Of a stretch of DNA of 64,000 nucleotides, positions 14,056 to 54,153 are shown in pieces. Origin of the DNA: Sporomusa sp. KB1 (GTDB lineage Bacteria; Bacillota; Negativicutes; Sporomusales; Sporomusaceae); contig NZ_VLKC01000002.1 of assembly GCF_007830295.1 (NCBI RefSeq), positions 3,412,770 to 3,476,769 on the forward strand, written 5' to 3'. The notes under the pieces are model-generated. The model saw nothing but the letters and a program-made list of their open reading frames with translations, had not been told where the DNA came from and ran no database searches. Position numbers and translations under genes: made by a program. Positions within the stretch are counted from its first letter, which is position 1. Every line of letters starts with the position of its first letter.

Positions 14056-14131
14056 GCGCCTGTAGCTCAGCGGATAGAGCAACCGCCTTCTAAGCGGTTG
14101 GTCGTAGGTTCGATTCCTACCAGGCGTGCCA
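14056..14131 (+). tRNA. tRNA-Arg (TCT), integration target
   Basis: The acceptor GCGCCTG/CAGGCGT (near complete), the anticodon loop CTTCTAA giving TCT, the T-arm GGTTCGATTCC and an encoded GCCA are visible. Its 3' half from the anticodon loop onwards is repeated at three places downstream, marking it as the attB of tandem integrative elements. This copy is the only complete gene. Confidence 0.95.
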
Positions 14132-14891: not shown

Positions 14892-15645
14892 TGTTTCTCC
14901 AATATCTCTTTTCCTTTAGCTTTACTATCTGCTAATATGCCTGCCATTATATCGATTGTATTACGTGAGCGTAAATATCGGTAGTGGTAGAAGTTCGGGC
15001 GTGTCCTAGTTTACCGGATACTGTGCGAACGTCTACGCCGCTTTTGATTAAGAAGCTGGCCGCCATGTGCCTAAAGCTATGCGGCGATATGTGTGGCAAG
15101 TTATTTGCTTCTGTAAATTTACTAAGCCAATTATTCAATGTGTCGGGGTGCATTGCTTTACCGTTCCAGGTACAGAATAAAAAATCGTTTTCCGGTTCTT
15201 CTGCGCCTTCCCATTTCCCGCCCTTTTCTATTGTGCCACCTAGTTTTAGCCTTTTTGCAGCTTGTTCTGCCTTATGGCGTTTCAATATAGCCATAACAGT
15301 GGGCGGGGCTGATACTATACGGCTGGATAATTCGGTTTTTGGTTCTTTAAGGGTTAGCCCTTCACCTGATATATATTGTAGGGTATGGCGTATTTTTAAT
15401 ATATTTCGGTCAATGTCTATTGAATTCCATTTAAGGGCGAATAATTCTCCGCGTCTCATGCCTGTTGATAGTGCCAGCAGTATTAGCGCTTGATACTTTG
15501 TTTCTTCGGCGTCTAGTTTGGCCAGAAATTCAGATAGTGTCTGTTCATTATATACGGTAATATGTGGTGATGTGGCTTTTGGTGTGTCGGTACGTTCGCA
15601 AGGATTAGCAGAGCATAGGCCCCACTTTATAGCGCAGATGAGCCA
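14873..15645 (-). pseudogene. Tyrosine site-specific integrase, truncated and frameshifted (element 1)
   Basis: The catalytic half is well preserved: TGMRRGELFALKW (first Arg), PHSFRHMAA (H-x-x-R), LGHARTSTTTDIYAH (second His and the nucleophile Tyr). The arm-binding and most of the core-binding domain are missing: homology starts only at AIKWGLCSANPCERTD, about 15640, and upstream codons are unrelated. At the 3' end a shift near 14950 separates the stop after HVIQSI from the natural tail MAGILADSKAKGKEI, which ends at the hairpin. An open frame continues to 15867 but is not integrase. The element therefore cannot excise with its own enzyme. Confidence 0.85.
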
Positions 15646-15653
15646 CCGGGAAA

Positions 15654-15671
15654 GGGGAGGGAAACCTCCCC
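15654..15671. other. GNRA-type hairpin at the integrase breakpoint
   Basis: GGGGAGG, GAAA and CCTCCCC form a perfect 7-bp stem with a GAAA tetraloop exactly where integrase homology ends. It may mark a recombination junction; no function is assigned. Confidence 0.4.
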
Positions 15672-15709
15672 AACTTCCTTGGAGATAGTATATCACCTCT
15701 TTTGATAAA

Positions 15710-15871
15710 ATGAAATGGCTTAACACGGAAGTATTATTTATTGTGGTGGCCGCTCTATATTTTTCCTCTCGGAAACCAGTGGGTGGACTCGAAATGACAG
15801 CCGATGTATTGATGGTGATCGCCTTGATATTGATTGTAGTAAAACATATTGTGTATAGGTGGTACAAATGA
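15710..15871 (+). CDS. Small membrane protein, phage-like
   Basis: An ATG-initiated 53-residue frame with two hydrophobic segments (EVLFIVVAALYF and LMVIALILIVV) separated by a short charged loop. It ends in ATGA, overlapping the start of the next gene, a common arrangement of small phage genes. The Shine-Dalgarno is poor, so confidence is moderate. It resembles in layout the single-helix gene at 52682, which is likewise near an identical terminator. Confidence 0.5.
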   Translation: MKWLNTEVLFIVVAALYFSSRKPVGGLEMTADVLMVIALILIVVKHIVYRWYK

Positions 15872-18547: not shown

Positions 18548-18565
18548 TGCGGGGAGGGTGTTACT

Positions 18566-20134: not shown

Positions 20135-20186
20135 CTTCTAAGCGGTTGGTCGTAGGTTCGATTCCTACCAGGCGTGCCAGAGAAAT
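20135..20186 (+). repeat. att site 2, tRNA-Arg 3'-half repeat
   Basis: Identical over 52 bases to 14087-14138. It marks the junction between element 1 and element 2. Only the anticodon-to-3' half of the tRNA is present, so no functional tRNA is made. Confidence 0.92.
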
Positions 20187-20299: not shown

Positions 20300-20541
20300 C
20301 TATTTGGCCTGCTTTTTTCGTTTCTCTATAGCATTTTTACCTTCAAGTGTACTCTTCTCTAAGAAGCTTCCATAATGTCAGCGGTTTGCTGCTCAGCCGA
20401 CTGTATTACATGTGCATATATATCTGTAGTGGTGGATGTACGAGCGTGACCGAGTTTGGCGCTAACAGTGCGAATATCTACCCCGCTCCTTATTAAAAAG
20501 CTGGCAGCCATATGCCTAAAGCTATGTGGTGAAATATGGTC
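20300..20541 (-). pseudogene. Integrase C-terminal remnant (element 2)
   Basis: Only the last quarter of a tyrosine recombinase survives: HISPHSFRHMAASFLI, LGHARTSTTTDIYAHV. It is about 85% like the element 1 copy by eye. A single-base shift near 20362 separates the stop after MEAS from the natural tail FLEKSTLEGKNAIEKRKKQ, which ends in the terminator at 20298-20316. The 5' part is gone; homology stops at 20541 and unrelated sequence follows. Confidence 0.85.
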
Positions 20542-25339: not shown

Positions 25340-28300
25340 TCAGCTTTCCTCAACAAACCCCATATCTTCATCCGTTTCTTCAATCCCTAGTTTAATCTCT
25401 TTTTGTATTTTTAGTAGCAAAGGATGTTTTGGATTAGAGGCAAGTCCTTTTTGAACTTGAATCATTGCTTCTTCCAAACGCCCCTTATTTCGGTACAGCT
25501 TAATTATTAGCATATACCCCGACATATGTCCTGGATTATCTTTAATAGATTCAAGATAAAAGTTTTCTGCTCCCTGAATATCTCCGTCTTTTTCTCTCAC
25601 CTTCCCAAAAACAGTTTTAATACGTGCTTTCTCCAGCTTGCTAATTCTTTGTTCTTCAGCAATTTCTTCTGATTTTAGCGCCAGACTCTCCGCCTCGTTC
25701 CTATATGTCCTTGAGTGTGTTACAAGGGCATATGCAAAACCAGAGTATACCCACCATGCTTTCGGGTCGATTTCGAGAGCCTTATTGAAATGTTTATGGG
25801 CCAGGCGTATGTCTCCAACCCGAACATAAGATACTGCTAATCTATACTCAACATCAACGTCGTCCTGCATTTTAGACAGCACAATATAATATTTTATTGC
25901 TTCGCTATAATCTCCCCTCTTATAAAGCTCCAAGGCCATAGGCCGAAGTTCGCTTGCATAGGAACTTTTGAATTGGAGCGCCTTATTCAAGTTGAGTGAT
26001 GCGCTAAAATGAGATACTGTTTCGCCTATATTTTCCGGACTGTTATTCGCTAGGCATAGTCCTTCATAGTATTGAGCTACCTTATCGTGTAATATTAAGC
26101 GTTCTTCTTTTGTAAGCATTCGATAGAAATGTTTTTTTAGTAGTGGGTGCAACCAATACTCATCTTGATCATTAATCCCTACAATAAATCTATCAATTAG
26201 ACTAGATAAAGTATTATAAGCTTCTGTTCCCCAAAGGTTTGTTATTAAGCTTAGTGTTGCTGGAACGTTCAGAACCGATAAAAATTTAGCTAGACTTAAT
26301 TGATCTTCAGGAATTTCTATGCCTTCTAATAAATATTCAACTAGCAATTCCCTAAAACGGTTATAAATTTCCGGATTGGAAATTATCTCCTGAAGTGAGA
26401 TTTTTTCAACTTGCTGTGCGGCTAGAATTGCCGCCATAGGATGTCCATGTAAATTTGGAACTAAATCCGTACTATCAAAGCTGTAATTCCCCCCACGAAT
26501 AGATCTTATATGAAAGTCAAGTATTGCTTTAATATATTCGTCCGACATTGGAAACAGTCGTATAGGATTAGCTTTATATTCAAGTGCAAAAGATCTTGTA
26601 CCTACTAGAATAATTTTATTTCCCTGGTAACCCGAAGAACTACAAAGACAATCAAAAAATTCTCTAAATCCATTATGAATGAAGTGTCCACTTTGATTCA
26701 ATACATACTGCCAATCATATATTACGAGACATGCATCACTATACGTATTAAATGCAGCCATTAGCTTATCGATGATAGGCGTATAATCTTTGTTATTGTT
26801 ATATATTTGTTCTATTTCTTCTGTTTTTATGTCAGCACGTAGTACATGTACTAATTGGCTAAGGAACCGTACTATTCCCGTTCCTGGGGTTAGACGTATT
26901 TCACACTTTGTCCACCTTGCTTCGGGTAGAACCTTCTTAAAAATCTGGGATAAAAATGCGGTTTTACCAATACCTCTAATACCTTTAATAAAGACTACTC
27001 GTTCATCTTTGCTATTAAAAAAATTGTTTACCGTCGGAATAAGGTCTTCTCGATCAAAAAAAGGCTTACTATCCTCATTAGACTGTTCCTGATGCTTAGT
27101 ATATTTCGAGAGATTCATAGAAAGGTTCTTTAGAATATCAGGGACTTTAGCTAGATGATCTGGGGATAAATTAGGCATTAGACTTGAAATCTTAGCAAAA
27201 GCCTGTTGTAGATTATTAAATCTAAAGGAATCTAAGTTCAAATTCGTCCCTAGTGGCAAATAAGACAATATTTGAGCGACATCTTCCTGGCGTAGTCCTC
27301 CATTAGACATAGCTTGAGAAAGGTAATTCATTTTTGCTTTCCAAATTTTGTTTTGAATAACAGGTAAATTATTGTAGTTTCCGGCACTAATTTTATCACA
27401 CTCAAGTTGCACCTTAGTTAGCGCAGCGCTATCCAAATATAAAATAGGAATATAACTAACCAGTTGGGCGGGCAGATGTTCCACGGCAGACTGTTTTTTT
27501 TGAAATTGCAGTTCTAAGTCTATATCAGCGATTACAATAGCTTCACAATCCTTGTTAATGGGCTTAGTGAACTTTTCGTCGGTCATTCCTAGGTTATCCC
27601 CAACGAACTGAGCGAAAATCTTAGAATCGCCGATTTTTGCGGTGTTAGCAAATACACTTGGAAGTTCATTTAAAAGTTTACTCGAACAGATATCTTCAAA
27701 AGGTGCAGTCGATGGTGACCATGCTGGCACGACTAGCAACAAGTTATCTGTATAATTTGCAGTTAATCGAATAGCTTCAATACATATCATTACCAAGATA
27801 TTGAACCGCTTTCCGTTTACCTCAACTTCAATACTTTTCCGCTCTTGACTCTCAGTTACTATATCAGTTTCCCATTTAGAGCGATATTGCTTTTTAATAA
27901 TATAATTCTGACCAGGAGTTATAATTGGACAGACTGCTTTCCGTATATCAGATTCGGTACCAGAAAGAGAGACTGCGATATGGCTTTCTGTATAACTATT
28001 CTCCGCATTTGCATTAACGACATGCGTTCCTGCAATTATAATGATATTATTGGATTTTGCAAATTCGTCTAGTTGTGGTAGCAAATAAGGGGGTATAGAA
28101 TACTCTGGGAAAATAATAATATCCGCTTTGCCCCCAGCCGCTAATTCTAAGCAAGCCTTGATTTTTTCAGTAATAATTTCAAGATACTCTTTTTCTATGT
28201 TTGTACAAAATTTCTGTATCGAATCGTTTATTGACCTTATCTGATTAAATCCGTCCTTATAATCACCCGAAGGTTCTTGGAGCCAGTTAGCACTCACTGT

Positions 28301-28354
28301 CAAATATGCTGGGAAAAAATCAATCTGTGCTAAAGCAACCCGTACCTTTGCCAT
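25340..28354 (-). CDS. Nitrilase-STAND NTPase-TPR fusion, probable antiviral defence protein
   Basis: 1004 residues in three parts. Residues ~3-310 are a carbon-nitrogen hydrolase: IIIFPEYSIPP (catalytic Glu), IIKKQYRSKWE (candidate Lys) and ILVMICIEAIR (nucleophile Cys followed by Glu), so the triad looks intact. Residues ~435-720 are a STAND/NACHT-type ATPase with Walker A IKGIRGIGKTAFLSQI and Walker B-like ACLVIYDWQYVL. Residues ~790-990 hold TPR repeats (YKRGDYSEAIKYYIVL, AHKHFNKALEIDP, NPGHMSGYMLIIKLYRNKGRLEEAMIQVQKG). By analogy with Avs proteins the TPR region would sense a phage product and the ATPase would oligomerise to switch on the hydrolase. The start was moved to the ATG preceded by GGGGGTG. 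Confidence 0.85.
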   Translation of the reverse strand: MAKVRVALAQIDFFPAYLTVSANWLQEPSGDYKDGFNQIRSINDSIQKFCTNIEKEYLEIITEKIKACLELAAGGKADIIIFPEYSIPPYLLPQLDEFAKSNNIIIIAGTHVVNANAENSYTESHIAVSLSGTESDIRKAVCPIITPGQNYIIKKQYRSKWETDIVTESQERKSIEVEVNGKRFNILVMICIEAIRLTANYTDNLLLVVPAWSPSTAPFEDICSSKLLNELPSVFANTAKIGDSKIFAQFVGDNLGMTDEKFTKPINKDCEAIVIADIDLELQFQKKQSAVEHLPAQLVSYIPILYLDSAALTKVQLECDKISAGNYNNLPVIQNKIWKAKMNYLSQAMSNGGLRQEDVAQILSYLPLGTNLNLDSFRFNNLQQAFAKISSLMPNLSPDHLAKVPDILKNLSMNLSKYTKHQEQSNEDSKPFFDREDLIPTVNNFFNSKDERVVFIKGIRGIGKTAFLSQIFKKVLPEARWTKCEIRLTPGTGIVRFLSQLVHVLRADIKTEEIEQIYNNNKDYTPIIDKLMAAFNTYSDACLVIYDWQYVLNQSGHFIHNGFREFFDCLCSSSGYQGNKIILVGTRSFALEYKANPIRLFPMSDEYIKAILDFHIRSIRGGNYSFDSTDLVPNLHGHPMAAILAAQQVEKISLQEIISNPEIYNRFRELLVEYLLEGIEIPEDQLSLAKFLSVLNVPATLSLITNLWGTEAYNTLSSLIDRFIVGINDQDEYWLHPLLKKHFYRMLTKEERLILHDKVAQYYEGLCLANNSPENIGETVSHFSASLNLNKALQFKSSYASELRPMALELYKRGDYSEAIKYYIVLSKMQDDVDVEYRLAVSYVRVGDIRLAHKHFNKALEIDPKAWWVYSGFAYALVTHSRTYRNEAESLALKSEEIAEEQRISKLEKARIKTVFGKVREKDGDIQGAENFYLESIKDNPGHMSGYMLIIKLYRNKGRLEEAMIQVQKGLASNPKHPLLLKIQKEIKLGIEETDEDMGFVEES

Positions 28355-28652
28355 ATTGTTCACCCCCACGATCAGCAAATATATATTGTATTTTCTAGAC
28401 TAATTGCGATTTTCCTCCACTTTGGTAAACTTTAGTAGAATATTGACTTTTTTTGTATTTATTACAATCCACTGCACATCCAGCAATCTTGTTTTTATGT
28501 TTACCTATAATAAATATTTAGAAAACACGGGGATATTCTCTACAGGAGCACAAGACCTATATATCCCATTCAAAATACAAGACCTCTTTGTAAATTCCGA
28601 CATTTTCCAAGTTAAGAAAAAGAAAAATCCTGACAGATTTGCCAGGATGAAA

Positions 28653-32900: not shown

Positions 32901-32926
32901 GACAGGTCGCTACCTGTCTCTTTTTT
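32901..32926. terminator. Rho-independent terminator
   Basis: GACAGGT and ACCTGTC form a perfect stem around CGCT, followed by TCTTTTTTT. It ends the early operon. The T-run lies on the plus strand only. Confidence 0.8.
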
Positions 32927-33642
32927 TATTTGAGAAGCCACTTGGCCAAACGCTCGTTCTTAAGGAATTCATTACGGTATCTTTGATTTTCAGCTAATAA
33001 AGGTTCAAATTGCTCAAAGGAATCTTTCCGACTTTTTGCTATTGGACTATTTTGTAGTGTTTTGTAAATTAGACTGAAGACTAAACAAGCAATATTTCCC
33101 AGTTCCCAGATATGTGATTGCTTTATTAACTCATCAGCACGATCAAAGTAGTTATTAACATGTGTCTGTTTATCTATTGTTAGTAGCGAGGCAAATAAAT
33201 TTCCGTGTGCGTAATATTCATTGATTTGTTTTTTTACTCTATGAAGGTGTTCGGACTCCGCTTGATAGCTCTGTTTTAGCCATTTGTACACCTTATGTTT
33301 AATCTCTGGTACGGGTTTAGCCCCTATGCTATCAGTAACTATGAAATTTTCAATTTGGGTGTGGTGTAGACTGTAAGCAGCCAAACAAGCCGCTTCAAGC
33401 GAAAACCTCAACATTAACTGAGCTTGGACTTGATGATCTCTTAAAGTTGAAAGTAAGCACAGGGAAAGACTACTGTGCACTTGTGCGTTAAGCAAATAGA
33501 AAGGCATGGCCTTTCTATTGTGAATTTCTGCTATATTTTCTAGTAGGCCGATTATTTCCTCTGTATTTCGGATGAGGGCTTGGTTATTATCTATAAATTC
33601 TTGTACAATCTGGTTTTCTTGCTCAGCCAACTCGTAGATCAC
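32926..33642 (-). CDS. All-alpha hypothetical protein, perhaps DUF5677-like
   Basis: 238 residues, predominantly helical. The segment LMLRFSLEAACLAAYSL and, later, VKKQINEYYAHGNL resemble helices of DUF5677/HEPN-like proteins, but there is no clear R-x4-6-H motif. Convergent with the early operon. Its position between the control region and the AAA/protease pair suggests an accessory or defence gene. Start ATG is overlapped by a run of possible upstream starts; the Shine-Dalgarno is weak (AGGTGAT). Confidence 0.5.
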   Translation of the reverse strand: MIYELAEQENQIVQEFIDNNQALIRNTEEIIGLLENIAEIHNRKAMPFYLLNAQVHSSLSLCLLSTLRDHQVQAQLMLRFSLEAACLAAYSLHHTQIENFIVTDSIGAKPVPEIKHKVYKWLKQSYQAESEHLHRVKKQINEYYAHGNLFASLLTIDKQTHVNNYFDRADELIKQSHIWELGNIACLVFSLIYKTLQNSPIAKSRKDSFEQFEPLLAENQRYRNEFLKNERLAKWLLK

Positions 33643-33926
33643 CTATATATCACGCCTTTCATTACTGCTCTTTGGTTTCTTCTGCTAAATAATTGCAGAG
33701 CATACCTAATTACATAGTAAAAATTTTTCGATTACATGAATATATCCTGCTTACTATATTTTACTATGTAATTAGATTACTGTTAATGGCAAAAATAAAG
33801 AGGAATAAATTTCATTTTGCCGAATGCGTACAATAATTAGGAGTCTCATTATTTTAGGGGTTCTGATATAATTTTAAATACCATATTTTAAATTTTAGAG
33901 AAGACATATAATAAAGCAGAGGAGAG
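33643..33926. other. AT-rich intergenic region before the AAA/protease operon
   Basis: No gene is seen. TTACTATGTAATTAG-type palindromic stretches around 33707-33780 occur twice in opposite orientation (TACATAGTAAAAATTTTTCG and TTTTACTATGTAATTAG) and might bind a regulator. Confidence 0.35.
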
Positions 33927-34925
33927 ATGAGGTGCGCCACTATGGCAACGGGTGAGCAAATAAAGGCACTAATAAAGGCACATTTTGAAAACAGCTCTGA
34001 CCGATTTGCAACAACTGCTCTACAGGTTGCCGCCCATGAAGCCAGACAAGGGCATGATACACTAGCTGAGCAAATTAGGGATATAGTACAAAAATCAAAA
34101 CCAACAAGTCCTAATGTCTCCGTAATACAGTTTAAGCGAGAAATAAGTGACTTGATAGTTTGTAACAATTCGGAAAACCGGTTAACTGATTTAATTGTTC
34201 CTGATCCGGTTAAAAATAGGCTTAAGAGAATATTAACTGAATTTAAGCAACAAGAGAAATTAAGGAAGTTTGGACTGAAAAATAGACGAAAAATCCTTAT
34301 AACTGGCCCACCTGGGACAGGAAAAACCCTTACAGCTTCTGTACTTGCTGGTGAACTCCACTTACCTTTAATGGTTGTAATGATGGATAAATTACTTACA
34401 AAGTTTATGGGTGAAACAAGTGCTAGACTTCGTCAAATTTTTGATACGATTCAGGATAACATGGGCGTTTATTTATTTGATGAATTCGATACTATAGGTG
34501 CAGACCGAGCATATGATAATGACGTTGGTGAAATGCGACGTGTCTTAAATTCATTTTTGATGTTTATAGAGCAGGACAACTCATCAAGTATTATTATTGC
34601 TGCCACTAACAACGTTCGTATGTTGGATCAAGCATTGTTTCGTCGTTTTGATGATGTATTACAATATGAACGCCCTACTGATACGGATATCGAGCACCTC
34701 ATTAAGAATAGAGTTAGCTCCTTTATTCCTGCTTCTGGCTTGCCACAAAACCTCATTATAGAGGCGAAGGGCTTAAGCCATGCGGAAATAGTTCAAGCTT
34801 GTGATGATGCTTTGAAAGATGCAGTATTGCAAGATAAAATAAGCATATCTCCGGATTTTCTGATTCATTCTGTCCAGGAGAAGAAAAATGCTTACGATCG
34901 TGTCTGGGGGATTGATCGTGGCTAA
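33927..34925 (+). CDS. AAA ATPase partner of a subtilisin-like protease
   Basis: 332 residues. A ~110-residue helical N-terminal domain precedes one AAA module: Walker A GPPGTGKTLTASVLAGEL (~residue 128), Walker B VYLFDEFDTIG (~185), sensor-1 IIAATNN and arginine-finger region LFRRFDD. The module is FtsH/spastin-like. The stop overlaps the start of the protease gene, so the two are coupled and probably act as a complex. A second ATG five codons in is also plausible. Such AAA-subtilase pairs are widespread in accessory regions; an antiviral role is inferred from the island. Confidence 0.85.
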   Translation: MRCATMATGEQIKALIKAHFENSSDRFATTALQVAAHEARQGHDTLAEQIRDIVQKSKPTSPNVSVIQFKREISDLIVCNNSENRLTDLIVPDPVKNRLKRILTEFKQQEKLRKFGLKNRRKILITGPPGTGKTLTASVLAGELHLPLMVVMMDKLLTKFMGETSARLRQIFDTIQDNMGVYLFDEFDTIGADRAYDNDVGEMRRVLNSFLMFIEQDNSSSIIIAATNNVRMLDQALFRRFDDVLQYERPTDTDIEHLIKNRVSSFIPASGLPQNLIIEAKGLSHAEIVQACDDALKDAVLQDKISISPDFLIHSVQEKKNAYDRVWGIDRG

Positions 34926-37368
34926 GAAAACACACATTTTTTTGCAAGATCAACAAGAAACTATAAAATTCCGAGCTCCTGGCGGTGGGTCAGAGGAAAT
35001 ACAACTTCCAAGGAGAAATAGGGTAGACCATGCAGCATTCTTAAGGCGCCGGTTAACAGAGGCGTGGAATCAAGCTTCAGTAATAATGACTCAAAGAAAA
35101 GCAGTCTCGTTACCAACTAGGCAAGGCGTTTATTTGCAGTTTCGGGGTGCTCCAGGGAATAAACTACCTGTAACTAGTTTGGAGCAGATTAGATCGGGTA
35201 TTAGGTTACTCAATGTTCAATATGAAGGTGAGCCAGGCCAAGAGGTCACCACTGCTACAGTTTATATTCCAGATGGGAAGCAAGAATTATTTTTAAAAAA
35301 AATCGCTAAGTACGAAAAAGAAAATACCCCAAAAAAGGGGGAGCCATATCACGAGAACTTATTTGCTCCATTAGACGATATTCGATATGCAATACTGGAA
35401 TCATTCTGGCTCGACCTACCAGAATCTATTCCGACTGATGATCCAATTTGGTGTGAAGCTTGGCTACAGGGTAATTCGCTGGAAATTACGGAATCTATTT
35501 TTGTTATGGCTGAGGTTTTTGGTATTTTAGTTAATAAGAACGAAATTTTACACTTCCCCGAAAGACAGGTTGTGCTTATTAAGGCGAACCGCCAACAACT
35601 CGTAGAACTAATTGAGGGAAGTTCATATATTGCAGAATTTAGAAAGGCTCGAGATACTGCGCGCTTTTTTGAGGAATTGGAAAATGTCGAACAGTCTGAC
35701 TGGGTAAACGAATTACTATCTCGTTTGCAATTTAATGATAGTGATGTTTCCATATGTATTTTGGATACCGGAGTAAATAATGGGCATCCCTTGCTTGCAC
35801 CTGTGATTGATGATTGTGACTGTCATACGTTTAATCCTAATTGGGGGAGAGATGATCAACGGGGGCATGGGACTCGTATGGCTGGGTTAGCTGCTTATGG
35901 TGATCTACGATGTATCCTTGAAGGTAGCAGTCCTGTTGAGGTAAGGCATCGAATTGAGTCTGTAAAAATCCTCCCTTCAGGAGGAAGTAATGATCCGGAT
36001 TTGTACGGGTATATTACTCAGCAAGCTGCAAGTCTAACTGAGATTAGCAATCCTACCCGCAGAAGAATATCATGTATGGCCGTGACGACTTCGGAGGGCA
36101 TTCTTACGGGACGTCCATCTTCCTGGTCAGGTGCAATAGATGCATTAACGTCAGGATATCATGACCAACATAAACGGTTATTTATTGTTTCGGCGGGAAC
36201 AATTCCCGAGGCTCATTGGGGTGACTATCCCCGAATAAACCTTAAGTATCCTGTTGAGGACCCGGGCCAATCCTGGAATGCATTAACTGTTGGGGCATAT
36301 ACCCAAAAGGATAATGTCACAGATTTACGATATGGGCCTCTAACACCTATAGCAAGTGCTAATCAGCTATCGCCATCAAGTACTACTTCTGTTACATGGG
36401 AGGAACGTTGGCCGATTAAGCCTGATGTTGTTTTCGAGGGAGGAAACGGAGTGCGAGATCAAAGTGGTTTCCCTTCCGGTTGCGATGACCTTTCATTGAT
36501 AACTACATATTTTAAACCACATCAGAGACATTTAAGTGTATTTTGGGGTACTAGTGCTGCTACAGCAGAAGCTTCACATCTAGCTGCTCAGATTCAATGT
36601 GAGTATCCTAATATGTGGCCTGAAACAGTTAGAGGTATAATTGTTCACTCGGCAGAATGGACAAGCCAAATGGAAGCACAGTTTCTGGATGGAAGAAGTC
36701 GGGCCGATTATAGAAAACTTATGCGGATAGTTGGTTATGGGGTGCCAAATGTCAATCGATGCTTAGAGTGTTCGAGGCACCGCTTGACGCTAATTGCTCA
36801 AGAGGAGATGCAACCTTTCGAAAAGTCACCTAAAGGTACTTATCGTGCGAAGGATATGCATATCTATAAACTGCCTTGGCCAACTGAAGTGCTCAGAGGA
36901 CTTGGGGAAACATTGATTACAATGAAAGTTACCCTATCCTATTTTGTAGAACCAGCCCCAGGCGAAATTGGATGGGGAGATAGGTATCGTTATTCTTCTT
37001 ATGGATTACGTTTTGATATTAACTCTCCCTTAGAAAGTAAGGATCAATTTTTGGTTAGGCTAAATGCTGCAGTAAGGGACGATGGTGAAAAAGTTGAAAC
37101 TTCAAGTCGTAGCGATCGCTGGAATATTGGTCAAACGAGTGATCTCGGTTCAATACATTCCGACTTTTGGAAAGGCACCGCGGCGGAAATTGCTGAATGT
37201 AATTTAATAGGGATTTATCCCGTATCAGGTTGGTGGAAACTACGGCCACATTTAGGTAAATATGAGCAACGAGCCAGATATTCATTAATAGTCTCACTAC
37301 AAACACCTGATATTGAAACCGATATTTATACACCAATAGTTACACCTATAATTGTACCAGTCTCGTAA
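34918..37368 (+). CDS. S8 (subtilisin-like) serine protease coupled to the AAA ATPase
   Basis: 816 residues. The catalytic triad is present in order: Asp in VSICILDTGVNNGHP (~residue 285), His in QRGHGTRMAGL (~320), Ser in WGTSAATAEASHLA (~550). The oxyanion region reads LFIVSAGTIPE, where most subtilases have SAGN, an unusual substitution. The first ~240 residues form a large N-terminal domain with no signal peptide, so the enzyme is cytoplasmic. GTG 34918 is chosen because GGGGGA precedes it and it overlaps the AAA gene stop; an ATG lies 10 codons upstream. The ATPase may gate or feed the protease. Confidence 0.88.
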   Translation: MAKKTHIFLQDQQETIKFRAPGGGSEEIQLPRRNRVDHAAFLRRRLTEAWNQASVIMTQRKAVSLPTRQGVYLQFRGAPGNKLPVTSLEQIRSGIRLLNVQYEGEPGQEVTTATVYIPDGKQELFLKKIAKYEKENTPKKGEPYHENLFAPLDDIRYAILESFWLDLPESIPTDDPIWCEAWLQGNSLEITESIFVMAEVFGILVNKNEILHFPERQVVLIKANRQQLVELIEGSSYIAEFRKARDTARFFEELENVEQSDWVNELLSRLQFNDSDVSICILDTGVNNGHPLLAPVIDDCDCHTFNPNWGRDDQRGHGTRMAGLAAYGDLRCILEGSSPVEVRHRIESVKILPSGGSNDPDLYGYITQQAASLTEISNPTRRRISCMAVTTSEGILTGRPSSWSGAIDALTSGYHDQHKRLFIVSAGTIPEAHWGDYPRINLKYPVEDPGQSWNALTVGAYTQKDNVTDLRYGPLTPIASANQLSPSSTTSVTWEERWPIKPDVVFEGGNGVRDQSGFPSGCDDLSLITTYFKPHQRHLSVFWGTSAATAEASHLAAQIQCEYPNMWPETVRGIIVHSAEWTSQMEAQFLDGRSRADYRKLMRIVGYGVPNVNRCLECSRHRLTLIAQEEMQPFEKSPKGTYRAKDMHIYKLPWPTEVLRGLGETLITMKVTLSYFVEPAPGEIGWGDRYRYSSYGLRFDINSPLESKDQFLVRLNAAVRDDGEKVETSSRSDRWNIGQTSDLGSIHSDFWKGTAAEIAECNLIGIYPVSGWWKLRPHLGKYEQRARYSLIVSLQTPDIETDIYTPIVTPIIVPVS

Positions 37369-37752
37369 CCAAGAGGTAAATTAATGGGGGTGCAACCTAG
37401 ATAGCGTAACATCACATAGAAATATTATACATAGTAAATAATGAAAGTGGCAATCCCATTGAACCTATTGGGGTTACGGCTACTGTAAGATAGAGTAAAA
37501 CGCCAATTTGCCAACTTCAAAACCATCTGTGTGGCACTAACCTGTTATGGGTGAGTTCGATTCCTCATAGAAAAATAAAAACATCCGAGTATTTTATCTC
37601 GGATGTTTTTTCTTGGTTTAATAAGTGAAATTCATTTTGCAGTGACAATCAAATGACAGTCTAACGTTTTATACTGAAAAGCAGGAGTTGCTATTTCATT
37701 TACAGAAAAAGAAATTTATGGGTTGCAGACAGAAAGATTGGAGATATGTGAA
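37369..37752. other. Intergenic region with a tRNA-like T-arm and a terminator
   Basis: GGTGAGTTCGATTCCTCAT near 37549-37567 looks like a T-arm, and it is followed 13 nt later by a terminator, the same order as at the tRNA-Arg att copies. No full tRNA can be folded upstream. It may be an old attachment remnant separating the protease module from the next genes. Confidence 0.4.
37581..37612 (+). terminator. Rho-independent terminator
   Basis: ACATCCGAG pairs with CTCGGATGT around TATTTTAT, followed by TTTTTC. Confidence 0.85.
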
Positions 37753-38862
37753 ATGTTAAAAAATGCACTTTATTATCCGCATATGACTTTCCAAAATCCT
37801 AGTTGGCTCAAAGCAATGGCAATGTACTATGAAAACATATATAGAATAGTTCCAGATAATATCATTCCAGATGATCCAGAGGAATTACAATCCTTGTTAG
37901 AAGATTCATCTATTGGCAAGATGCTTAATCCAATAAGATATGCAAAAGCTACGGCTCATTTGTTTCTTAAAAAAAAAGAAAATTGGAATGCATCAGCACT
38001 AATCGGAGATGACGAAGAAGAGAAAGAAAAAAATTTTATAAGAGTGCATGAGGATAAGACAGATATTTCAGTGCGAAAATTATTCCTCTCCTTGGGATAT
38101 CAAGAAACCGATTCATGGATAGATTTACCGATAGGCTTAGCATCGAATTACATGTTATTTCTTGCTACAGAAATCGCCAAAAAAAATAAATTAGATTTAA
38201 TTACCGACTCGTGGGCACCTTGGACAGCAACGACCTATTTCAATGTAGATGGTAATATTGATGAATTCTTATTGCCGTGTGGCGTTGGTGGGTATAGTGA
38301 GAACATAGACGATCCTTTTGCATTGTTCTGCCTTCTTATCGGGGAAATTACTCCTATAAACATTCATGAGATTCCGGCAGAAAAAATTGTAGCGTTTAGA
38401 GACAGAAGGCGAGATGAAATATCAAATTTTCGAAATAAGGTTGAGGAATTGTACGAAGAGTTACAGAGTTTAGACGATCCGGTAGTAAGGTATGATTCTA
38501 TTATAAACAAAGTTAAAGAACTAGAAAAAGCAAAACGAGAATATCAAGATAGTGCTGATATAATTAAAGCGAAAAAATGGTTTGGCGCTTCTTTTATGGG
38601 GTTTCCTGCTCCGCTTGCATTAGGAAGTGTTTTTAATATTCCAGTTTCGCAAATCGTTACACTGGCTGCTACTAGTATCGCAATTGGCGGGTTATTTAAT
38701 ATAAAAAACTCAAAGGTCGAATTAAACAAATTGAAGAAAGATAATCCGGCATCATTATTGGTTGAAATAGAACGTAGCTTTAAACAATATACCCGATTTA
38801 GAGGTGTCGGCGATATGAATCACCACGCTTATAATTGTATGGAAGAGTATATTAATGATTAG
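37753..38862 (+). CDS. DUF6236-like protein
   Basis: 369 residues. The N-terminus NALYYPHMTFQNPSWLKAMAMYYENIYRIVP matches my memory of the DUF6236 family, whose members occur in accessory regions and have unknown function. A coiled coil (residues ~215-275) is followed by two hydrophobic stretches (FMGFPAPLALGSVF and VTLAATSIAIGGLF) that could be membrane helices. The frame is open from TTG 37723; ATG 37753 has GGAG upstream and starts at the family motif. Very AT-rich like its downstream neighbour. Confidence 0.65.
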   Translation: MLKNALYYPHMTFQNPSWLKAMAMYYENIYRIVPDNIIPDDPEELQSLLEDSSIGKMLNPIRYAKATAHLFLKKKENWNASALIGDDEEEKEKNFIRVHEDKTDISVRKLFLSLGYQETDSWIDLPIGLASNYMLFLATEIAKKNKLDLITDSWAPWTATTYFNVDGNIDEFLLPCGVGGYSENIDDPFALFCLLIGEITPINIHEIPAEKIVAFRDRRRDEISNFRNKVEELYEELQSLDDPVVRYDSIINKVKELEKAKREYQDSADIIKAKKWFGASFMGFPAPLALGSVFNIPVSQIVTLAATSIAIGGLFNIKNSKVELNKLKKDNPASLLVEIERSFKQYTRFRGVGDMNHHAYNCMEEYIND

Positions 38863-39100: not shown

Positions 39101-40561
39101 TTGATAAAAGACAAAGAAGAAATAGAAAAATATATTTATATTTTAAGCGAAACTTTATGTAGAAGCGATTATTGGGATGAAGGACAATTTAATATATGTA
39201 AAAATATCGTTGACAATAATTCTAATATGAAAAATTTATATGAAAGTACTCAAAAGAAGTTAGAGACAGATATTTTCAATCAGATGGCTAAAATCAGAAA
39301 TATAGAAGCTTTTCAGACAGCTTTATTTTGTATTCGTTCTAAAGCAAAAATTTTAATGTATAAAGACAATCTTCACGATTGGACAGAAAGATTTAAGATT
39401 GTCAACTATTTGTTTTTGTTTGCTGTTTCAACTGAAATAGGAAATAGGACAGTTCTTTTTTGTAAAGATAGTAATGTTGTTCGAAAAATTATTGGGTTAG
39501 GTTATACTTTTTTTTGTAATTTAGAATTTTACAATCAAACAAAATGTAATATAAAAGAAAAAATATATGAAAAATTTTATGCACGTATGGAAAAAGTGAC
39601 AAATCGGATAGGAGATATGCACACATATCAAATTAAACAAAAGGATATTTTATTGAATCTCCAGAAACGAAACATTAACGAAGTGAAAATGAAATCTAGA
39701 ATAAATGTACAATTGGAGAACTTTGATAAGATAAAACAAGCACTAAATAATAATAGAGTAATCTCAATCGCCAATAAAAATTCTCCGAAGGACGATTTAA
39801 TTATTCTTGAAAATAACGCCTTTAAGTGTCTGCAGAAAGAACTACAAGTTTTTATAGAAAGATTTGAAGCGAAAAAAAGTAAAAATCCATCAGACATAGA
39901 ATGTGATTTTATTTTTTCTTATCGTAATGCATCATATATATTTATATCTAAAAAAATAGTATTTGATACGTTAGAAATGTTTGAAAAGTTTTTTTTAATG
40001 GGACAGTATGAGAATCTATTCAAATATTATTATCAAGTAAATATTGATCAAAAAAATTTATCGGATTATAACAAACTTATGACATATAAAATTGTTGATT
40101 TTCTTTTTATAAATAATTATTTGTTGCCTTTGGAAACTAGAAAGGATAAATTGATAGTTCCGCGAATAGAAATTGAGGATTATACTTTGGAAAAACAGAG
40201 ACAACTTGGAGACATTGATGTATTATTTTATTCCTCGAATACAAGTATATTATATGTTGTAGAGTACAAAAATTACCAAATGATGATAACTAGAGAAAAT
40301 GATGTAAGTGCAGAAATATCTAAAGTGGAACGAGAAGAGACTATAAAAAAAGTATTAAGGCGTCAAGCTTGTATTGAGGAAAATATAGATTATATTTTAG
40401 AACACCTTTTCAAAAACCGATATAATGTAAAGGGAATTAAATCAATTATACTAACTACAAAACCAAATTTTTATTTTTTTCAATTTCCAATTGAAAATAC
40501 TGATTGTGAATATATGGATTGGATAGAATTCGAAGAGAAGGTAATTCAGAAGCAATTTTGA
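39101..40561 (+). CDS. Large hypothetical protein with C-terminal PD-(D/E)XK-like nuclease motif
   Basis: 486 residues, AT-rich, Lys/Asn-rich. The C-terminal part has QLGDIDVLFYSSNTSILYVVEYKNY (residues ~373-397), which fits the D...(E)xK catalytic pattern of restriction-endonuclease-like folds; downstream KSIILTTKPNFYF would be the last core strand. The N-terminal 340 residues are helical and unrecognised. Starts at TTG with AAAAGGA upstream. Its composition and position beside other island genes suggest a defence nuclease. Confidence 0.6.
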   Translation: MIKDKEEIEKYIYILSETLCRSDYWDEGQFNICKNIVDNNSNMKNLYESTQKKLETDIFNQMAKIRNIEAFQTALFCIRSKAKILMYKDNLHDWTERFKIVNYLFLFAVSTEIGNRTVLFCKDSNVVRKIIGLGYTFFCNLEFYNQTKCNIKEKIYEKFYARMEKVTNRIGDMHTYQIKQKDILLNLQKRNINEVKMKSRINVQLENFDKIKQALNNNRVISIANKNSPKDDLIILENNAFKCLQKELQVFIERFEAKKSKNPSDIECDFIFSYRNASYIFISKKIVFDTLEMFEKFFLMGQYENLFKYYYQVNIDQKNLSDYNKLMTYKIVDFLFINNYLLPLETRKDKLIVPRIEIEDYTLEKQRQLGDIDVLFYSSNTSILYVVEYKNYQMMITRENDVSAEISKVEREETIKKVLRRQACIEENIDYILEHLFKNRYNVKGIKSIILTTKPNFYFFQFPIENTDCEYMDWIEFEEKVIQKQF

Positions 40562-41036: not shown

Positions 41037-41086
41037 CTTCTAAGCGGTTGGTCGTAGGTTCGATTCCTACCAGGCGTGCCAGAGAA
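41037..41086 (+). repeat. att site 3, tRNA-Arg 3'-half repeat
   Basis: 50 bases identical to att 1 and att 2, ending element 2. A hairpin follows at 41088. Confidence 0.92.
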
Positions 41087-41117: not shown

Positions 41118-41362
41118 TTATGTTAAATGGGGGATAGTTATTTTATACAAACAACAATAGTTACATATAAATGCAGAAGACAGGTTTTACGTTTGCCTGT
41201 TTTTTCATTTGCAGCTTTTCTTGCACGGGCTATTCAGTTTTCCATTAAATTTCCGGTTTCTTGTTCTGCTGATGTGAAAAGCAATAGAAAAGTGAGCCAT
41301 TTGACATTCAGAAAGTGAGCCACTTTTGATGCTCAAGAAGTGAGCCACCCCGATAAAAAATA

Positions 41363-42157
41363 TTAAACCTCTTGGTCTCCGCTGTTGTTGTCTGGAGTCT
41401 CACCTCCAAACTGTCCGGTTGCCGCAATCCTCTGGCGGAGGCGGTATGAGGGACCGTTGGTATCGACAATATGAGAACGATGCGTCATTCGGTCCACGAT
41501 AGCAGCAGTAAGCATAGGATCACCGAAGATCTCCGTCCAGCGTGAAAACTCCAGGTTCGTAGTGATGATCACACTGCCACGCTCATTACGACTGGATAGA
41601 ATCTGAAATAGCAGCTCGGCGCTGGAACGCGCGAAGGTTAGATACGACAGTTCATCCAAAATCAATAGATTGAGTTTGGTGAGTTGTTGTTCCAACTTAG
41701 AAAGTGTGTGATTTTGCTGAGCTTCTAACAAATCATTCACTAGCCCCGCAGCAGTGTAAAACCGCACGCGCAGTCCTTTTTCACAGGCTTTTAGACCGAG
41801 GGCAGTTGCCAGATGCGTTTTCCCAGTACCAGGGTTGCCACAAAAGACAATGCCTTCTTTTTGCTGGATATATTGACAATCAGCCAGTTGCCAAATAACA
41901 GCAGGGTCTATGTGTGGTACGTTTTTGAAGTCAAACTCATCGAGGGTTTTAATGATCGGAAACTTGGCTTGCTGCATTTTTAGGCGGCGTTGATTTTCCT
42001 GACGATGCGCCACTTCATTTTTCATGATTTTGAGCAGAAAATCCGCATAGCCCCAGCCATTTTGCTCCGCTTCCCGAGCCACCGTCTGGTAGTTAGAGAA
42101 ACAAGGCAGCTTTAGCTGCTTAGCATAAAACGTAATCATTCCCGCATGGCTATCCAT
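41363..42157 (-). CDS. istB: IS21 helper ATPase IstB
   Basis: 264 residues with Walker A FCGNPGTGKTHLATALG (~residue 105), Walker B LLILDELSYLTF and the DnaA/DnaC-like sensor IITTNLEFSRW. It assists IstA in target choice. The ATG is 2 nt after the istA stop, with AGGGGAGG upstream inside istA. Confidence 0.94.
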   Translation of the reverse strand: MDSHAGMITFYAKQLKLPCFSNYQTVAREAEQNGWGYADFLLKIMKNEVAHRQENQRRLKMQQAKFPIIKTLDEFDFKNVPHIDPAVIWQLADCQYIQQKEGIVFCGNPGTGKTHLATALGLKACEKGLRVRFYTAAGLVNDLLEAQQNHTLSKLEQQLTKLNLLILDELSYLTFARSSAELLFQILSSRNERGSVIITTNLEFSRWTEIFGDPMLTAAIVDRMTHRSHIVDTNGPSYRLRQRIAATGQFGGETPDNNSGDQEV

Positions 42158-42159
42158 GT

Positions 42160-43689
42160 TTAATTCCTCCCCTTCATGAGTGTGTCATATTGCTTTAAGT
42201 TCACTGGCATGATTTTGGGGAGGCGCGGATCAGTAAGAATAGGCTCTGGTGACTGTACCTGCCTATGTATTGCCTGTAGAAGGTGAAATCGGACAGCCTC
42301 AACGGAGTAATGATTGGCTAATTGGGCTTTACGAACAGCACCCAAGACCGCTTCTTGGCCGTACTGGACAGTGAATTTTAGAATAGTAACGAAATCTCTG
42401 TCGGCGTTTTTCCCCGTCAGGCGATGCTTGAAATCCATAATCTCTGACGGAAGTCCGGCGTGGCGTACTGGTGCTGCATTGGTGACAGCGCGTGGTTTTT
42501 TCTCAAGCACCGGCAAATAATGAGCTAACTTATAGGAAACAGCACCTCTTTTGTAAGAGCGTTGATGAGTCACAATCTTTGCTGATTTGTACCAAACCTC
42601 CACATTTAGAGGATATCCTTTAACAGTGACTTCCTGACCAATGAGGTGCACCGGTACAGAGTACTCGTTATGATCGAACTGTATCAAAGATCCATCTCTC
42701 ACTTTAGCTGGTTTTGTAATGGCACATTCGAAGCTACTGTGCGGCAGAGACGTGAGACAGGCCTGTTCTTCTGCTAGCATAGTACCAACCAGTGCTGGAC
42801 GGCTTTGGATTTTGTGAGTCAAGTAATCCTTGCTGTATTGATCCAAACAACTTTGCAGTTCTTCCCATGAATCTACGTGGGGAATTGGAACGAGGACATT
42901 ACGCCGGGAGAATCCTACCAGATTCTCCACCAGACCTTTTTCATTACCCTGTCCTGGATTGCAGAACGTGCTGGCAAAGGCATAATGAGCTTTGAGATAT
43001 TGAAAGGGCAATTGCTCCTGGGTAACGTGTCTGCCCCAGCCTTCCTTTACTGCAGTCTTTACGTTGTCATAGATTAGACGTCGGGGCACGCCGCCGAAAA
43101 ATTCGAATGCCTTCCGATGGCCCATGAGAAAAGACTCATAACGTTGAGTTGGGAAGGCTGCTACAAAAATGGCCGCACTATGACAGAGGCGCATGCAAAA
43201 GAGTTGGACTACGGTACGTTGGCCTTTTATATACGCGATAGCCGTTCCCCAATCTACCTGGGCTGCTTCGCCTGGATCAAATTCAAGGGGGATATGTACC
43301 TTTGTTGTCTGCTTTAGCTGATGGACGAATTGACGAATGGTGGAGTATCCACCGGTAAAACCATGTTCTTTGCATAAACGATCATAAATTCGTTTGGCGG
43401 TGTGTCGCTGCTTGGGCAGATTATTTTGCCGGTCTTCTTCAAGATAGCCATTAATGATATCTTTGACCGGCCCGATTACTGGAAAACCACGCTGAGGGGT
43501 TTTGACGGTCAATGGCATGACCTCTCCTTCAACGTACTTTTTTACAGTATTTCTAGAAATACCAAGCCTTCTGGCAATTTCTCTTTGCGAAAGCCCTTCA
43601 ACTGCGTAGGCATGTCTGATAAACTGGTATTGATCCACCTCGATCACCTCTAAAACCTCCTGTCGCTTTTGTCTCAGCAACTCTAGCAT
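42160..43689 (-). CDS. istA: IS21 transposase IstA
   Basis: 509 residues. An N-terminal helix-turn-helix (GLSQREIARRLGISRNTVKKYVEG, residues ~32-54) is followed by an rve-type DDE core: the first Asp in AAQVDWGTAIAYI, the second in RRLIYDNVKTAV, and the Glu in NPGQGNEKGLVENLVGFSR. The C-terminal beta domain follows. Complete, so the element could be active. Confidence 0.94.
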   Translation of the reverse strand: MLELLRQKRQEVLEVIEVDQYQFIRHAYAVEGLSQREIARRLGISRNTVKKYVEGEVMPLTVKTPQRGFPVIGPVKDIINGYLEEDRQNNLPKQRHTAKRIYDRLCKEHGFTGGYSTIRQFVHQLKQTTKVHIPLEFDPGEAAQVDWGTAIAYIKGQRTVVQLFCMRLCHSAAIFVAAFPTQRYESFLMGHRKAFEFFGGVPRRLIYDNVKTAVKEGWGRHVTQEQLPFQYLKAHYAFASTFCNPGQGNEKGLVENLVGFSRRNVLVPIPHVDSWEELQSCLDQYSKDYLTHKIQSRPALVGTMLAEEQACLTSLPHSSFECAITKPAKVRDGSLIQFDHNEYSVPVHLIGQEVTVKGYPLNVEVWYKSAKIVTHQRSYKRGAVSYKLAHYLPVLEKKPRAVTNAAPVRHAGLPSEIMDFKHRLTGKNADRDFVTILKFTVQYGQEAVLGAVRKAQLANHYSVEAVRFHLLQAIHRQVQSPEPILTDPRLPKIMPVNLKQYDTLMKGRN

Positions 43690-43818
43690 ACAGGATTTTA
43701 ATGGGGTCGGGGTGGCTCATTTTGACATTGTCATTTTGAGCCACTTTGGCTCACTTCTAGAATATCATTCACATGCTGATTCCAGTACGTGTGCGTATAT
43801 ATCGGTAGTGGTACTAGT

Positions 43819-43954
43819 GTTATCTTTCTGACGGATAACAAAGGGGTTTATTGAGGGAATACCCTTTGCAGGTGAGGTTGATAGTAGAAATGTTTCCACA
43901 AGCTTATAACAGCCAACATTCAAACTATTCATAGCTATCGTTCTGAACGATAAC
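43819..43954. repeat. Two related palindromes next to the integrase break
   Basis: GTTATCTTTCTGACGGATAAC at 43819-43839 (written here as 20+1 bases) and CTATCGTTCTGAACGATAAC at 43935-43954 share the pattern TATC-N-TTCTGA-N-GATAACAAA. The first occurs again at 54279-54299. They lie where integrase homology stops in both copies. Confidence 0.4.
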
Positions 43955-44049
43955 AAATTTGTTGAGACTTTGGCTCCTGACAATTCAGGAGTCAAAAATA
44001 ACTATCCCGCCCACAAAGGAAAAAAATAACCGGCGCAATGGCCGGAGTA

Positions 44050-44400: not shown

Positions 44401-44688
44401 GGTGAGCACCGTCCTTTCGTGTATTCTCATTGTAGCATTATTGAGGGCGGGTAGCAATGTACATATAGAAGTTTGCGGATTTCATAGATGATAACAGTTA
44501 GGCAGCATGTGTATTCTATGGTACAATATGTATATGAATAAGTTTTAATAAAAGATGTGGCGTTGTTGTTTAATACTTCGATTGTTTAAATTTTCCATAA
44601 CCAAGCAATAATAGATGTATAAATGATTAGTTTAGTGAGTAACGCTACGCTAACTATAACATGTGTTGAGTAAGGAGGTTGCGAGAAA

Positions 44689-45684: not shown

Positions 45685-45735
45685 TTCTAAGCGGTTGGCC
45701 GTAGGTTCAATTCTTACCAGGCGTGCCAGAGAAAT
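45685..45735 (+). repeat. att site 4, diverged tRNA-Arg 3'-half repeat
   Basis: Matches att 1 over 51 bases with about four substitutions (GGCC for GGTC, TTCAAT for TTCGAT, TTCTTACC for TTCCTACC, first base). It ends element 3 and is the oldest-looking recognisable copy. Confidence 0.85.
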
Positions 45736-45931: not shown

Positions 45932-46916
45932 TTATTTTAATAGGGCATATGCTATTTTTTCAGAAATAAGCCTGCTGTTTTCCGGAATTTCATGACTATA
46001 AATATCAAGTGTAGTTGAAACTCTTGCATGGTCAAGTGCTTGGGATACACGTAATGGGAACATTATCGGCCAGCAAGGTAGTAGCAAACGTATGTCTTAA
46101 TGTGTGGAAATTCTTGCAGGGAAACCGTTTCCAACCTTTTTTTTTGACGGCACTCTTCCAATATTACTTCATATGATTTCTTTACGCTCATTGGTTTGGC
46201 AATGAAGTTGTTCAATGAAAACTCAATATGTAACTGTAGTTTATTCCAGAAACGCTTTAAAAAGTTCTGTGGGGATATTGGATTGTGGTTATTTGTTACA
46301 AAAGCAAGGTCATCATCACCGGGATGGAGCAAACGGCTTTCGGCCCATTTTTTCTTATAATCTTTTAGAGCGGCAACCGTTTGCGGGGGGATACTAATTT
46401 TTCGTACACTGCTTTGGTTTTTTGGTGGCTCAAAAATGATACCCTTTTTATTTGATACCTGAAGTGTTTGGCGAATAAATATTTCGTTGTTGTTTAAATC
46501 AATATCTTGACATCTTATTTCAAGTAATTCTCCTAATCGAATACCGGTAGTAACCGCTAATAGTAGCAATGGATAAAAACGATCTTTTTTTGCATGGGAT
46601 AACAATAATTCGATTTCAGTAGAAGTGAGAACATGTATCTCTTCGCGCACTACTTTAGGAGTATCAACAAGGTCGGCAGGATTACTTTGGAGATACTTAT
46701 TGATTACTGCCCTTCGCAGCGCGTTTCGAATCATTTGGTGAACCTTTTTTCTAGTTTCTCCAGAAAAACCTTCTTCTTGCATGTCGTTATACGATTCTGC
46801 AAGTGATTAGGGGTAATTTTTTGAATAGGCATATTCCATAAGGGCTCTGTATGATAAATTTGAGATGTATAGCCTTCATATGTACGCTGTCTTATTTTAG
46901 GTTTTGCATAACACAA
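45932..46916 (-). pseudogene. Tyrosine integrase, multiply frameshifted (element 4)
   Basis: Three frames must be joined: RQRTYEGYTSQIYHTEPLW (core-binding domain, 46731-46916), then NPADLVDTPKVV, TTGIRLGELLEI and EFPHIKT (46063-46782), then RVSQALDHARVSTTLDIYSHEIPEN (45932-46060, second His and Tyr). At least two shifts are present. It is a different integrase subfamily from that of elements 1-3 but has the same orientation beside att 4. Confidence 0.82.
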
Positions 46917-54075: not shown

Positions 54076-54153
54076 TTTCAGTCGAGGTGATTTCAGGAGC
54101 ATAATTGCGGCCCCGTGTAGGCGTTACTTTAATATAAATGCAGAAGACAGGTT

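What the first reader, a model, noticed from the sequence alone, without database searches (positions are those of the whole stretch)
33927..37368. Translationally coupled AAA ATPase and cytoplasmic subtilase with altered oxyanion residue
The stop of the AAA gene overlaps the GTG start of the protease. The protease has Asp, His and Ser in good motifs, no signal peptide, a 240-residue N-terminal domain, and SAGT where subtilases normally have the oxyanion Asn. Both lie in an island with other defence-type genes. An ATPase-gated suicide protease is a plausible abortive defence or toxin, but the activity is inferred.
Basis: partly seen in the sequence, partly recalled or inferred. Interest (0 to 1): 0.72.

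Follow-up and report, generated by a model that had tools for sequence, protein, structure and literature searches.

The report
IetAS toxin-antitoxin / phage-defence pair
This is a member of an already described bacterial self-protection system (IetAS, an ATPase that restrains a toxic cytoplasmic protease) carried on a tRNA-inserted genomic island; its one odd feature is a rare Thr in place of the active-site Asn, shared with only one other relative found.

Summary
In detail: an AAA+ ATPase gene (most likely 33942-34925) overlaps by 8 bp a cytoplasmic subtilase gene (GTG 34918 to 37368) with an intact Asp283/His317/Ser546 triad and Thr428 at the oxyanion position. The pair is IetAS: best PADLOC hits are IetA (3.9e-68) and IetS (8.4e-34), and it is 45%/40% identical to a Ti-plasmid pair whose DNA is 98.3% identical to that on pTiC58, where ietAS was described as a toxin-antitoxin system. 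IetA sits just upstream of IetS in every relative whose contig reaches far enough. The oxyanion residue is Asn in 90 of 92 sequences; Thr occurs only here and in one sister (65% identity, another genus of the same family). Both copies are under strong purifying selection with the triad kept, so Thr is a single-origin, retained substitution and not decay. The pair lies between two perfect 49-bp copies of the tRNA-Arg(TCT) 3' half, on an integrated island. AlphaFold resolves the N-terminus into a helix plus two alpha/beta modules; the second is ferredoxin-like, with the position of a propeptide. Most likely IetA restrains IetS, and phage infection or loss of the element releases it. Known kind; modest interest.

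The parts
33942..34925 (+). ietA: AAA+ ATPase, predicted antitoxin/regulator (ORF opens at ATG 33927; likely start ATG 33942)
   Evidence: PADLOC IetA 3.9e-68; Pfam AAA 7e-28; Met6 is Met in 77/82 aligned relatives
34305..34328 (+). IetA Walker A, GPPGTGKT (residues 127-134 counted from 33927)
   Evidence: K133 in 82/82, T/S134 in all
34473..34490 (+). IetA Walker B, LFDEFD (residues 183-188)
   Evidence: D185 in 81/82, E186 in 82/82
34638..34652 (+). IetA FRRFD (residues 238-242) with putative arginine finger(s) R239/R240
   Evidence: both Arg in 82/82
34918..37368 (+). ietS: cytoplasmic S8 (subtilisin-like) protease, predicted toxin/effector, 816 aa, GTG start
   Evidence: PADLOC IetS 8.4e-34; Pfam Peptidase_S8 5.8e-63
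34918..34925 (+). 8-bp overlap of ietA and ietS (translational coupling likely)
   Evidence: family median gap 6 nt
35434..35655 (+). IetS residues 173-246: ferredoxin-like module just before the catalytic domain, possibly an I9-type propeptide
   Evidence: AlphaFold models pLDDT 89-91; POIA1 1v5i_B Z 7.4, tied with ACT domains; no Pfam I9 hit
35764..35766 (+). IetS Asp283 (catalytic)
   Evidence: 91/91 sequences that cover the column
35866..35868 (+). IetS His317 (catalytic)
   Evidence: 91/91 sequences that cover the column
36199..36201 (+). IetS Thr428 at the oxyanion-hole position (Asn in nearly all relatives)
   Evidence: Asn in 90/92; Thr only in window and L002
36553..36555 (+). IetS Ser546 (nucleophile)
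   Evidence: 92/92; preceding Thr545 also 92/92
33706..33775 (.). perfect 17-bp inverted repeat (33706-33722 / 33759-33775) upstream of ietA; possible operator
37577..37610 (.). bidirectional terminator-like hairpin after ietS
14056..14131 (+). tRNA-Arg (TCT), insertion target of the island(s)
20135..20183 (+). perfect 49-bp copy of the tRNA-Arg 3' half (att repeat), left end of the ietAS segment
41037..41085 (+). perfect 49-bp copy of the tRNA-Arg 3' half (att repeat), right end of the ietAS segment
45685..45732 (+). 94% copy of the same att repeat
14947..15867 (-). tyrosine integrase beside the tRNA-Arg
   Evidence: Pfam Phage_integrase 6.8e-26
20359..20511 (-). C-terminal integrase remnant beside the left att repeat (LGHA..TTTDIYAHV, by eye)
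46063..46782 (-). partial tyrosine integrase beside the 45.7-kb att repeat
   Evidence: Pfam Phage_integrase 4.7e-11

Best explanation
A bona fide IetAS operon. IetA, an AAA+ ATPase with intact Walker motifs, acts as the antitoxin or regulator and keeps IetS inactive. IetS is a leaderless subtilisin-fold protease whose N-terminal part ends in a propeptide-like module. When the balance is upset (phage replication, or loss of the element), IetS is released and degrades cytoplasmic proteins, stopping growth: abortive infection and/or element maintenance. Thr428 arose once in the ancestor of this copy and its sister copy and is predicted to lower, not abolish, catalysis. Shown here: homology, operon, conserved catalytic and ATPase residues, Thr distribution, purifying selection, tRNA-Arg island. 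Shown by others for relatives: toxicity of IetS homologues and neutralisation by IetA homologues. Inferred: activity of this copy, the trigger, the substrate, the role of the propeptide-like module and of Thr428.
For: PADLOC IetA/IetS as best hits. 40% (IetS) and 45% (IetA) identity over nearly full length to the pTi_DC12-001 pair, whose DNA is 98.3% identical to pTiC58 97873-101372. IetA lies upstream wherever the contig allows, median gap 6 nt, 79 of 85 within 60 nt. Triad and Walker residues near-invariant in 92 and 82 sequences. Purifying selection between the two Thr copies: dN 0.28 (IetS) and 0.23 (IetA) with dS saturated. Thr clade support 100, one change. Island: att repeats and integrases; genes not found at the matching places in congeners. 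Functional data on relatives: PMC5006074, PMC8562856; replication proteins as trigger class: PMC10732053, PMC10286901.
Against: NCBIfam equivalog cut-offs for the anti-phage IteA/IteS are far from met (183.8 vs 510 bits; 51.7 vs 900), so equivalence with the phage-tested pair is not shown. Thr at the oxyanion position could cripple the enzyme. Published toxin-antitoxin tests used other members. The propeptide reading of residues 173-246 rests on a common fold and has no sequence support.
Confidence: 0.75

Rival explanations
1. Mainly an element-maintenance (addiction) toxin-antitoxin system of the tRNA-Arg island, with no real phage defence: loss of the island leaves stable IetS without IetA.
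For: IetAS stabilises pTiC58 and SgiAT helps maintain SGI1 (PMC5006074). IetS-like genes occur on 476 of 72,556 plasmid records, 331 of them conjugative. Here the pair sits on an integrated island.
Against: The family is in the defence databases and flanks of relatives carry type I restriction-modification genes. SgiAT showed no post-segregational killing from its own promoter. Not exclusive with defence.
Confidence: 0.3
2. A pseudoprotease: Thr428 abolishes useful catalysis and IetS now works by binding, as a sensor or decoy, with IetA.
For: Asn in 90/92. Replacing this Asn in PC1/3 by Lys abolished activity, and Asn-to-Asp in Kex2 lowered it markedly (PMC4182778).
Against: Asp, His, Ser and the preceding Thr are kept in both Thr copies and the catalytic domain is under purifying selection. 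PC2 works with Asp here, and changing it to Asn made no measurable difference (PMC4182778).
Confidence: 0.12
3. Not a defence or toxin pair but a housekeeping ATP-dependent protease (FtsH- or Lon-like) in which IetA unfolds substrates for IetS.
For: IetA is an FtsH/Cdc48-type AAA+ ATPase paired with the protease throughout the family.
Against: Patchy: matches in only 7 of 200 relatives, some of them distant; plasmid and island location; a homologous protease kills when expressed without its ATPase.
Confidence: 0.05

Closest known systems
IetAS of Agrobacterium pTiC58 (Yamamoto 2009; AAA-ATPase antitoxin IetA, subtilase toxin IetS)
   Same: Same two genes, same order, tight spacing, full-length similarity (IetS 40%, IetA 45% to the near-identical pTi_DC12-001 pair), same catalytic and ATPase motifs.
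   Different: Chromosomal tRNA-Arg island instead of a plasmid; Thr instead of Asn at the oxyanion position; no DUF6088 gene directly upstream.
SgiAT of Salmonella genomic island 1 (PMC5006074)
   Same: AAA-ATPase antitoxin plus subtilase toxin on an integrated genomic island; toxin lethal in E. coli, neutralised by the ATPase.
   Different: Different host and element. Sequences not compared here.
ietAS anti-phage defence system (PADLOC; NCBIfam IteA/IteS)
   Same: Both genes match the PADLOC models strongly.
   Different: Far below the NCBIfam equivalog cut-offs, so a distinct subgroup; no phage data for this copy.
AAA-ATPase/subtilisin-like TA132/3 of Mycoplasma mycoides (PMC8562856)
   Same: Same gene pair type, toxin and antitoxin functions tested.
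   Different: Distant host; sequences not compared here.
Prohormone convertase PC2 (subtilase with Asp at the oxyanion position; PMC4182778)
   Same: A subtilase with a natural replacement of the oxyanion Asn.
   Different: Asp, not Thr; secreted eukaryotic enzyme. Analogy only.

Membership tests
IetAS (PADLOC / pTiC58 type) | AAA+ ATPase matching IetA | tested here: met
   PDLC04232 3.9e-68 over residues 6-311; 45% identity to the pTi pair
IetAS (PADLOC / pTiC58 type) | Subtilase matching IetS | tested here: met
   PDLC02198 8.4e-34; 40% identity over 810 columns to the pTi pair
IetAS (PADLOC / pTiC58 type) | The two genes adjacent, ATPase first, same strand | tested here: met
IetAS (PADLOC / pTiC58 type) | Intact Asp-His-Ser triad and Walker A/B | tested here: met
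IetAS (PADLOC / pTiC58 type) | IetS toxic alone and neutralised by IetA | not testable with these tools
   shown for relatives only (PMC5006074, PMC8562856)
NCBIfam equivalog anti-phage IteA/IteS (NF042959/NF042956) | Curated score cut-offs of 510 and 900 bits | tested here: not met
   183.8 and 51.7 bits; so not filed under this equivalog
Subtilase family S8 (Pfam PF00082) | Score over the curated cut-off and D-H-S triad | tested here: met
   213.3 vs 21.8 bits; subtilisin fold Z 24-26
Oxyanion-Asn subtilases (the usual type; not required for S8 membership, PC2 has Asp) | Asn at the oxyanion-hole position | tested here: not met
   Thr428; Asn in 90/92 IetS sequences
I9 propeptide in cis (Inhibitor_I9) | Beta-alpha-beta-beta-alpha-beta module directly before the catalytic domain, with sequence similarity to I9 | tested here: inconclusive
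   fold and position fit; Z 7.4 to POIA1 is tied with unrelated ACT domains; no Pfam I9 match in 79 members
Anti-phage defence | Protects a host against phage | not testable with these tools
   inferred from family

The most novel reading that the evidence does not exclude
Thr428 is an adaptive change: a natural low-activity or altered-specificity oxyanion hole that makes IetS tolerable at rest (slow self-activation, little leak), so that the IetA-controlled switch has a higher threshold; a natural Thr-oxyanion subtilase in an immune role.
Probability: 0.2. Interest if true: 0.5.

Novelty: new member of a known kind. Interest (0 to 1): 0.3.

Why it matters
The mechanism of IetAS as phage defence was described as unknown in 2023 (PMC9958689). 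This copy adds three testable handles: a natural oxyanion variant in an otherwise intact enzyme; a confident structural model that divides the N-terminal region into modules, one of them propeptide-like, which suggests IetS may carry an inhibitor of its own besides IetA; and a family alignment across many phyla showing which residues are invariant. Otherwise it is an ordinary member of a widespread accessory system.

Tried and rejected
Viral contigs: no match to the IetS peptide patterns; phage records: no DNA match, so no evidence of phage carriage. Rfam: nothing at 30-45 kb. Sequence searches for a solved IetS structure found only partial S8 hits, and for the N-terminal region only a chance-level hit. 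A Pfam scan of the N-terminal region in 79 members gave no consistent family. In the structural second look residues 1-170 were barely tested, so no claim is made about their fold. I first took 22.98 kb as the left island border, because similarity to two congeners ends there; the tRNA-Arg repeats put it at 20.18 kb, and the 21.6-22.9 kb gene is itself a shared cassette. Considered and rejected: Thr428 as sequencing error (the sister genome has Thr with a different codon, ACT vs ACA); decayed pseudogene (purifying selection). The flanking-gene survey has no random-gene control, so it is only supportive. Congener comparison covered only about 20 kb next to the matching genes. Counts of relatives come from collections with one genome per species and a best-80 cut, so further Thr copies may exist.

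Full report
Observation. The window holds an AAA+ ATPase ORF at 33927-34925 and, overlapping it by 8 bp, a subtilase ORF that starts at GTG 34918 and ends at 37368, both on the + strand. The ATPase most likely starts at ATG 33942, because Met6 is Met in 77 of 82 aligned relatives. The protease has Asp283, His317, Ser546 and Thr428 at the oxyanion position. The stated coordinates and features are right apart from the start codon and the exact form of the overlap.

Identity. PADLOC's best hits are IetA (3.9e-68) and IetS (8.4e-34); Pfam gives AAA and Peptidase_S8. The pair is 45% (IetA) and 40% (IetS) identical, over nearly the whole length, to an AAA/S8 pair on pTi_DC12-001. That pair's DNA is 98.3% identical to a single place on pTiC58 (NC_003065.3 97873-101372), the plasmid on which IetAS was described as a toxin-antitoxin system (Yamamoto 2009, cited in PMC5006074; that place is taken to be the published ietAS because it is the only match in the record). 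The NCBIfam equivalog cut-offs for the anti-phage IteA/IteS are not met (183.8 of 510 and 51.7 of 900 bits), so equivalence with the phage-tested pair is not claimed. Whether the pTiC58 proteins themselves meet those cut-offs was not tested.

Family. One scan of species-representative genomes returned 80 relatives from many phyla. With plasmid and close-relative copies, every IetS whose contig reaches far enough upstream has IetA in front, with a median gap of 6 nt and 79 of 85 within 60 nt. Triad residues and the Thr before the nucleophile are invariant among rows that cover them; Walker A, Walker B and the two Arg of FRRFD are near-invariant in 82 IetA. More distant AAA-linked subtilases from the same phylum also carry Asn in the SAGN-type motif where it could be read.

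The oxyanion residue. Asn is present in 90 of 92 IetS sequences. Thr is found only in the window and in L002, a copy 65% identical from another genus of the same family. The codons differ (ACA and ACT), so it is not a sequencing error. On the tree the two form one clade with support 100, and one change explains the label. Between them dN is 0.28 for IetS and 0.23 for IetA while synonymous sites are saturated; the catalytic domain is constrained like the rest. The window departs from a residue kept by at least 90% of the others at only five further IetS positions, mostly conservative; Arg741 to Ser in the C-terminal part, shared with L002, is the exception. So Thr is an old, retained substitution in an otherwise intact enzyme. 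In other subtilases, replacing this Asn lowers or abolishes activity, but PC2 works with Asp (PMC4182778). What Thr does here is not known; reduced activity is the expectation.

Structure. AlphaFold gives a confident model (mean pLDDT 89.1). Residues about 262-620 are a subtilisin domain (Z 24-26). The first 262 residues, modelled alone (pLDDT 91.0), form a long helix, an alpha/beta module (70-157) and a ferredoxin-like module (173-246). The latter resembles ACT domains and, tied with them, the subtilisin inhibitor POIA1 (Z 7.4, 74 residues aligned of 76); the whole model's top Foldseek hits include an unprocessed pro-subtilisin, ProN-Tk-SP. The position, directly before the catalytic domain, is that of a propeptide. 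There is no sequence support, so a propeptide role is a hypothesis.

Surroundings. The pair lies between two perfect 49-bp copies (20135-20183 and 41037-41085) of the 3' half of tRNA-Arg(TCT) at 14056-14131. A third, 94% copy is at 45685-45732. In the whole genome, strong copies of this stretch occur only here. Tyrosine integrase genes or remnants stand beside the tRNA (14947-15867), the 20.1-kb repeat (20359-20511, by eye) and the 45.7-kb repeat (46063-46782). This looks like a tandem array of elements inserted at a tRNA, with an IS21 element in it. Genes from 23 to 44 kb were not found in the roughly 20 kb examined at the matching places in three congeners. The sister copy L002 sits beside a type I restriction-modification locus and an IS66-type transposon (by reading the ORFs). 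Flanks of other relatives include type I methyltransferase and specificity genes and integrases (no control). IetS-like genes occur on 476 plasmid records, 331 conjugative, and in 7 of 200 relatives. All this fits an accessory system. Other genes of this island are only weakly defence-like.

Mechanism. For relatives it is published that the protease kills when expressed alone and that the ATPase neutralises it (PMC5006074; PMC8562856). Phage replication proteins are the reported class of trigger for ietAS (PMC10732053, PMC10286901), and the mechanism was called undescribed in 2023 (PMC9958689). By homology, IetA restrains IetS, and infection or loss of the element releases it. Whether this copy serves mainly defence or element maintenance cannot be told from sequence; the two are not exclusive. 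The pseudoprotease reading is disfavoured by the kept triad and by selection.

Verdict. A real and correctly read pair, but a member of a known system. The Thr oxyanion is a genuine, rare, single-origin variant worth a bench test.

Noticed in passing
18362-19671 (+): A second recA, split by a frameshift into two overlapping ORFs, lies between the tRNA-Arg and the first att repeat; the genome has an intact recA elsewhere (G000:C1:4854578-4855366).
   Followed up: partly
25340-28378 (-): 1012-aa protein with an N-terminal nitrilase-like domain (resembling DRT-associated nitrilases), a STAND-type NTPase and C-terminal TPRs: a possible unlisted defence protein.
   Followed up: no
39101-40561 (+): 486-aa protein without any family hit; its stretch GDIDVLFYSSNTSILYVVEYKNYQ looks by eye like a PD-(D/E)XK nuclease motif.
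   Followed up: no
37723-38862 (+): DUF6236 protein directly after ietS, behind the terminator-like hairpin.
   Followed up: no
33706-33775: Perfect 17-bp inverted repeat with a 36-nt spacer between the divergent gene 32926-33642 (-) and ietA: operator or element remnant.
   Followed up: no
47752-47821, 51458-51527, 52211-52280: Three copies of a ~70-nt repeat with AAATAGGCAAAGGGACGGTG.
   Followed up: no
41158-44472 and 54125-54392: Stretches on both sides of the IS21 copy (41158-41273, 43774-43893, 44431-44472) recur in order at 54125-54392, as if an IS21 insertion split a sequence that is duplicated downstream.
   Followed up: no
L014:1-262, L013:2277-2882: A DUF6088 gene stands directly upstream of ietA on a Ti plasmid and on a Pseudomonas putida plasmid, from unlike backbones: possible third component.
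   Followed up: no
L011:1-2260: On Rhizobium plasmid pRlvC a second S8 peptidase with an MBL-fold hydrolase lies just upstream of ietAS.
   Followed up: no
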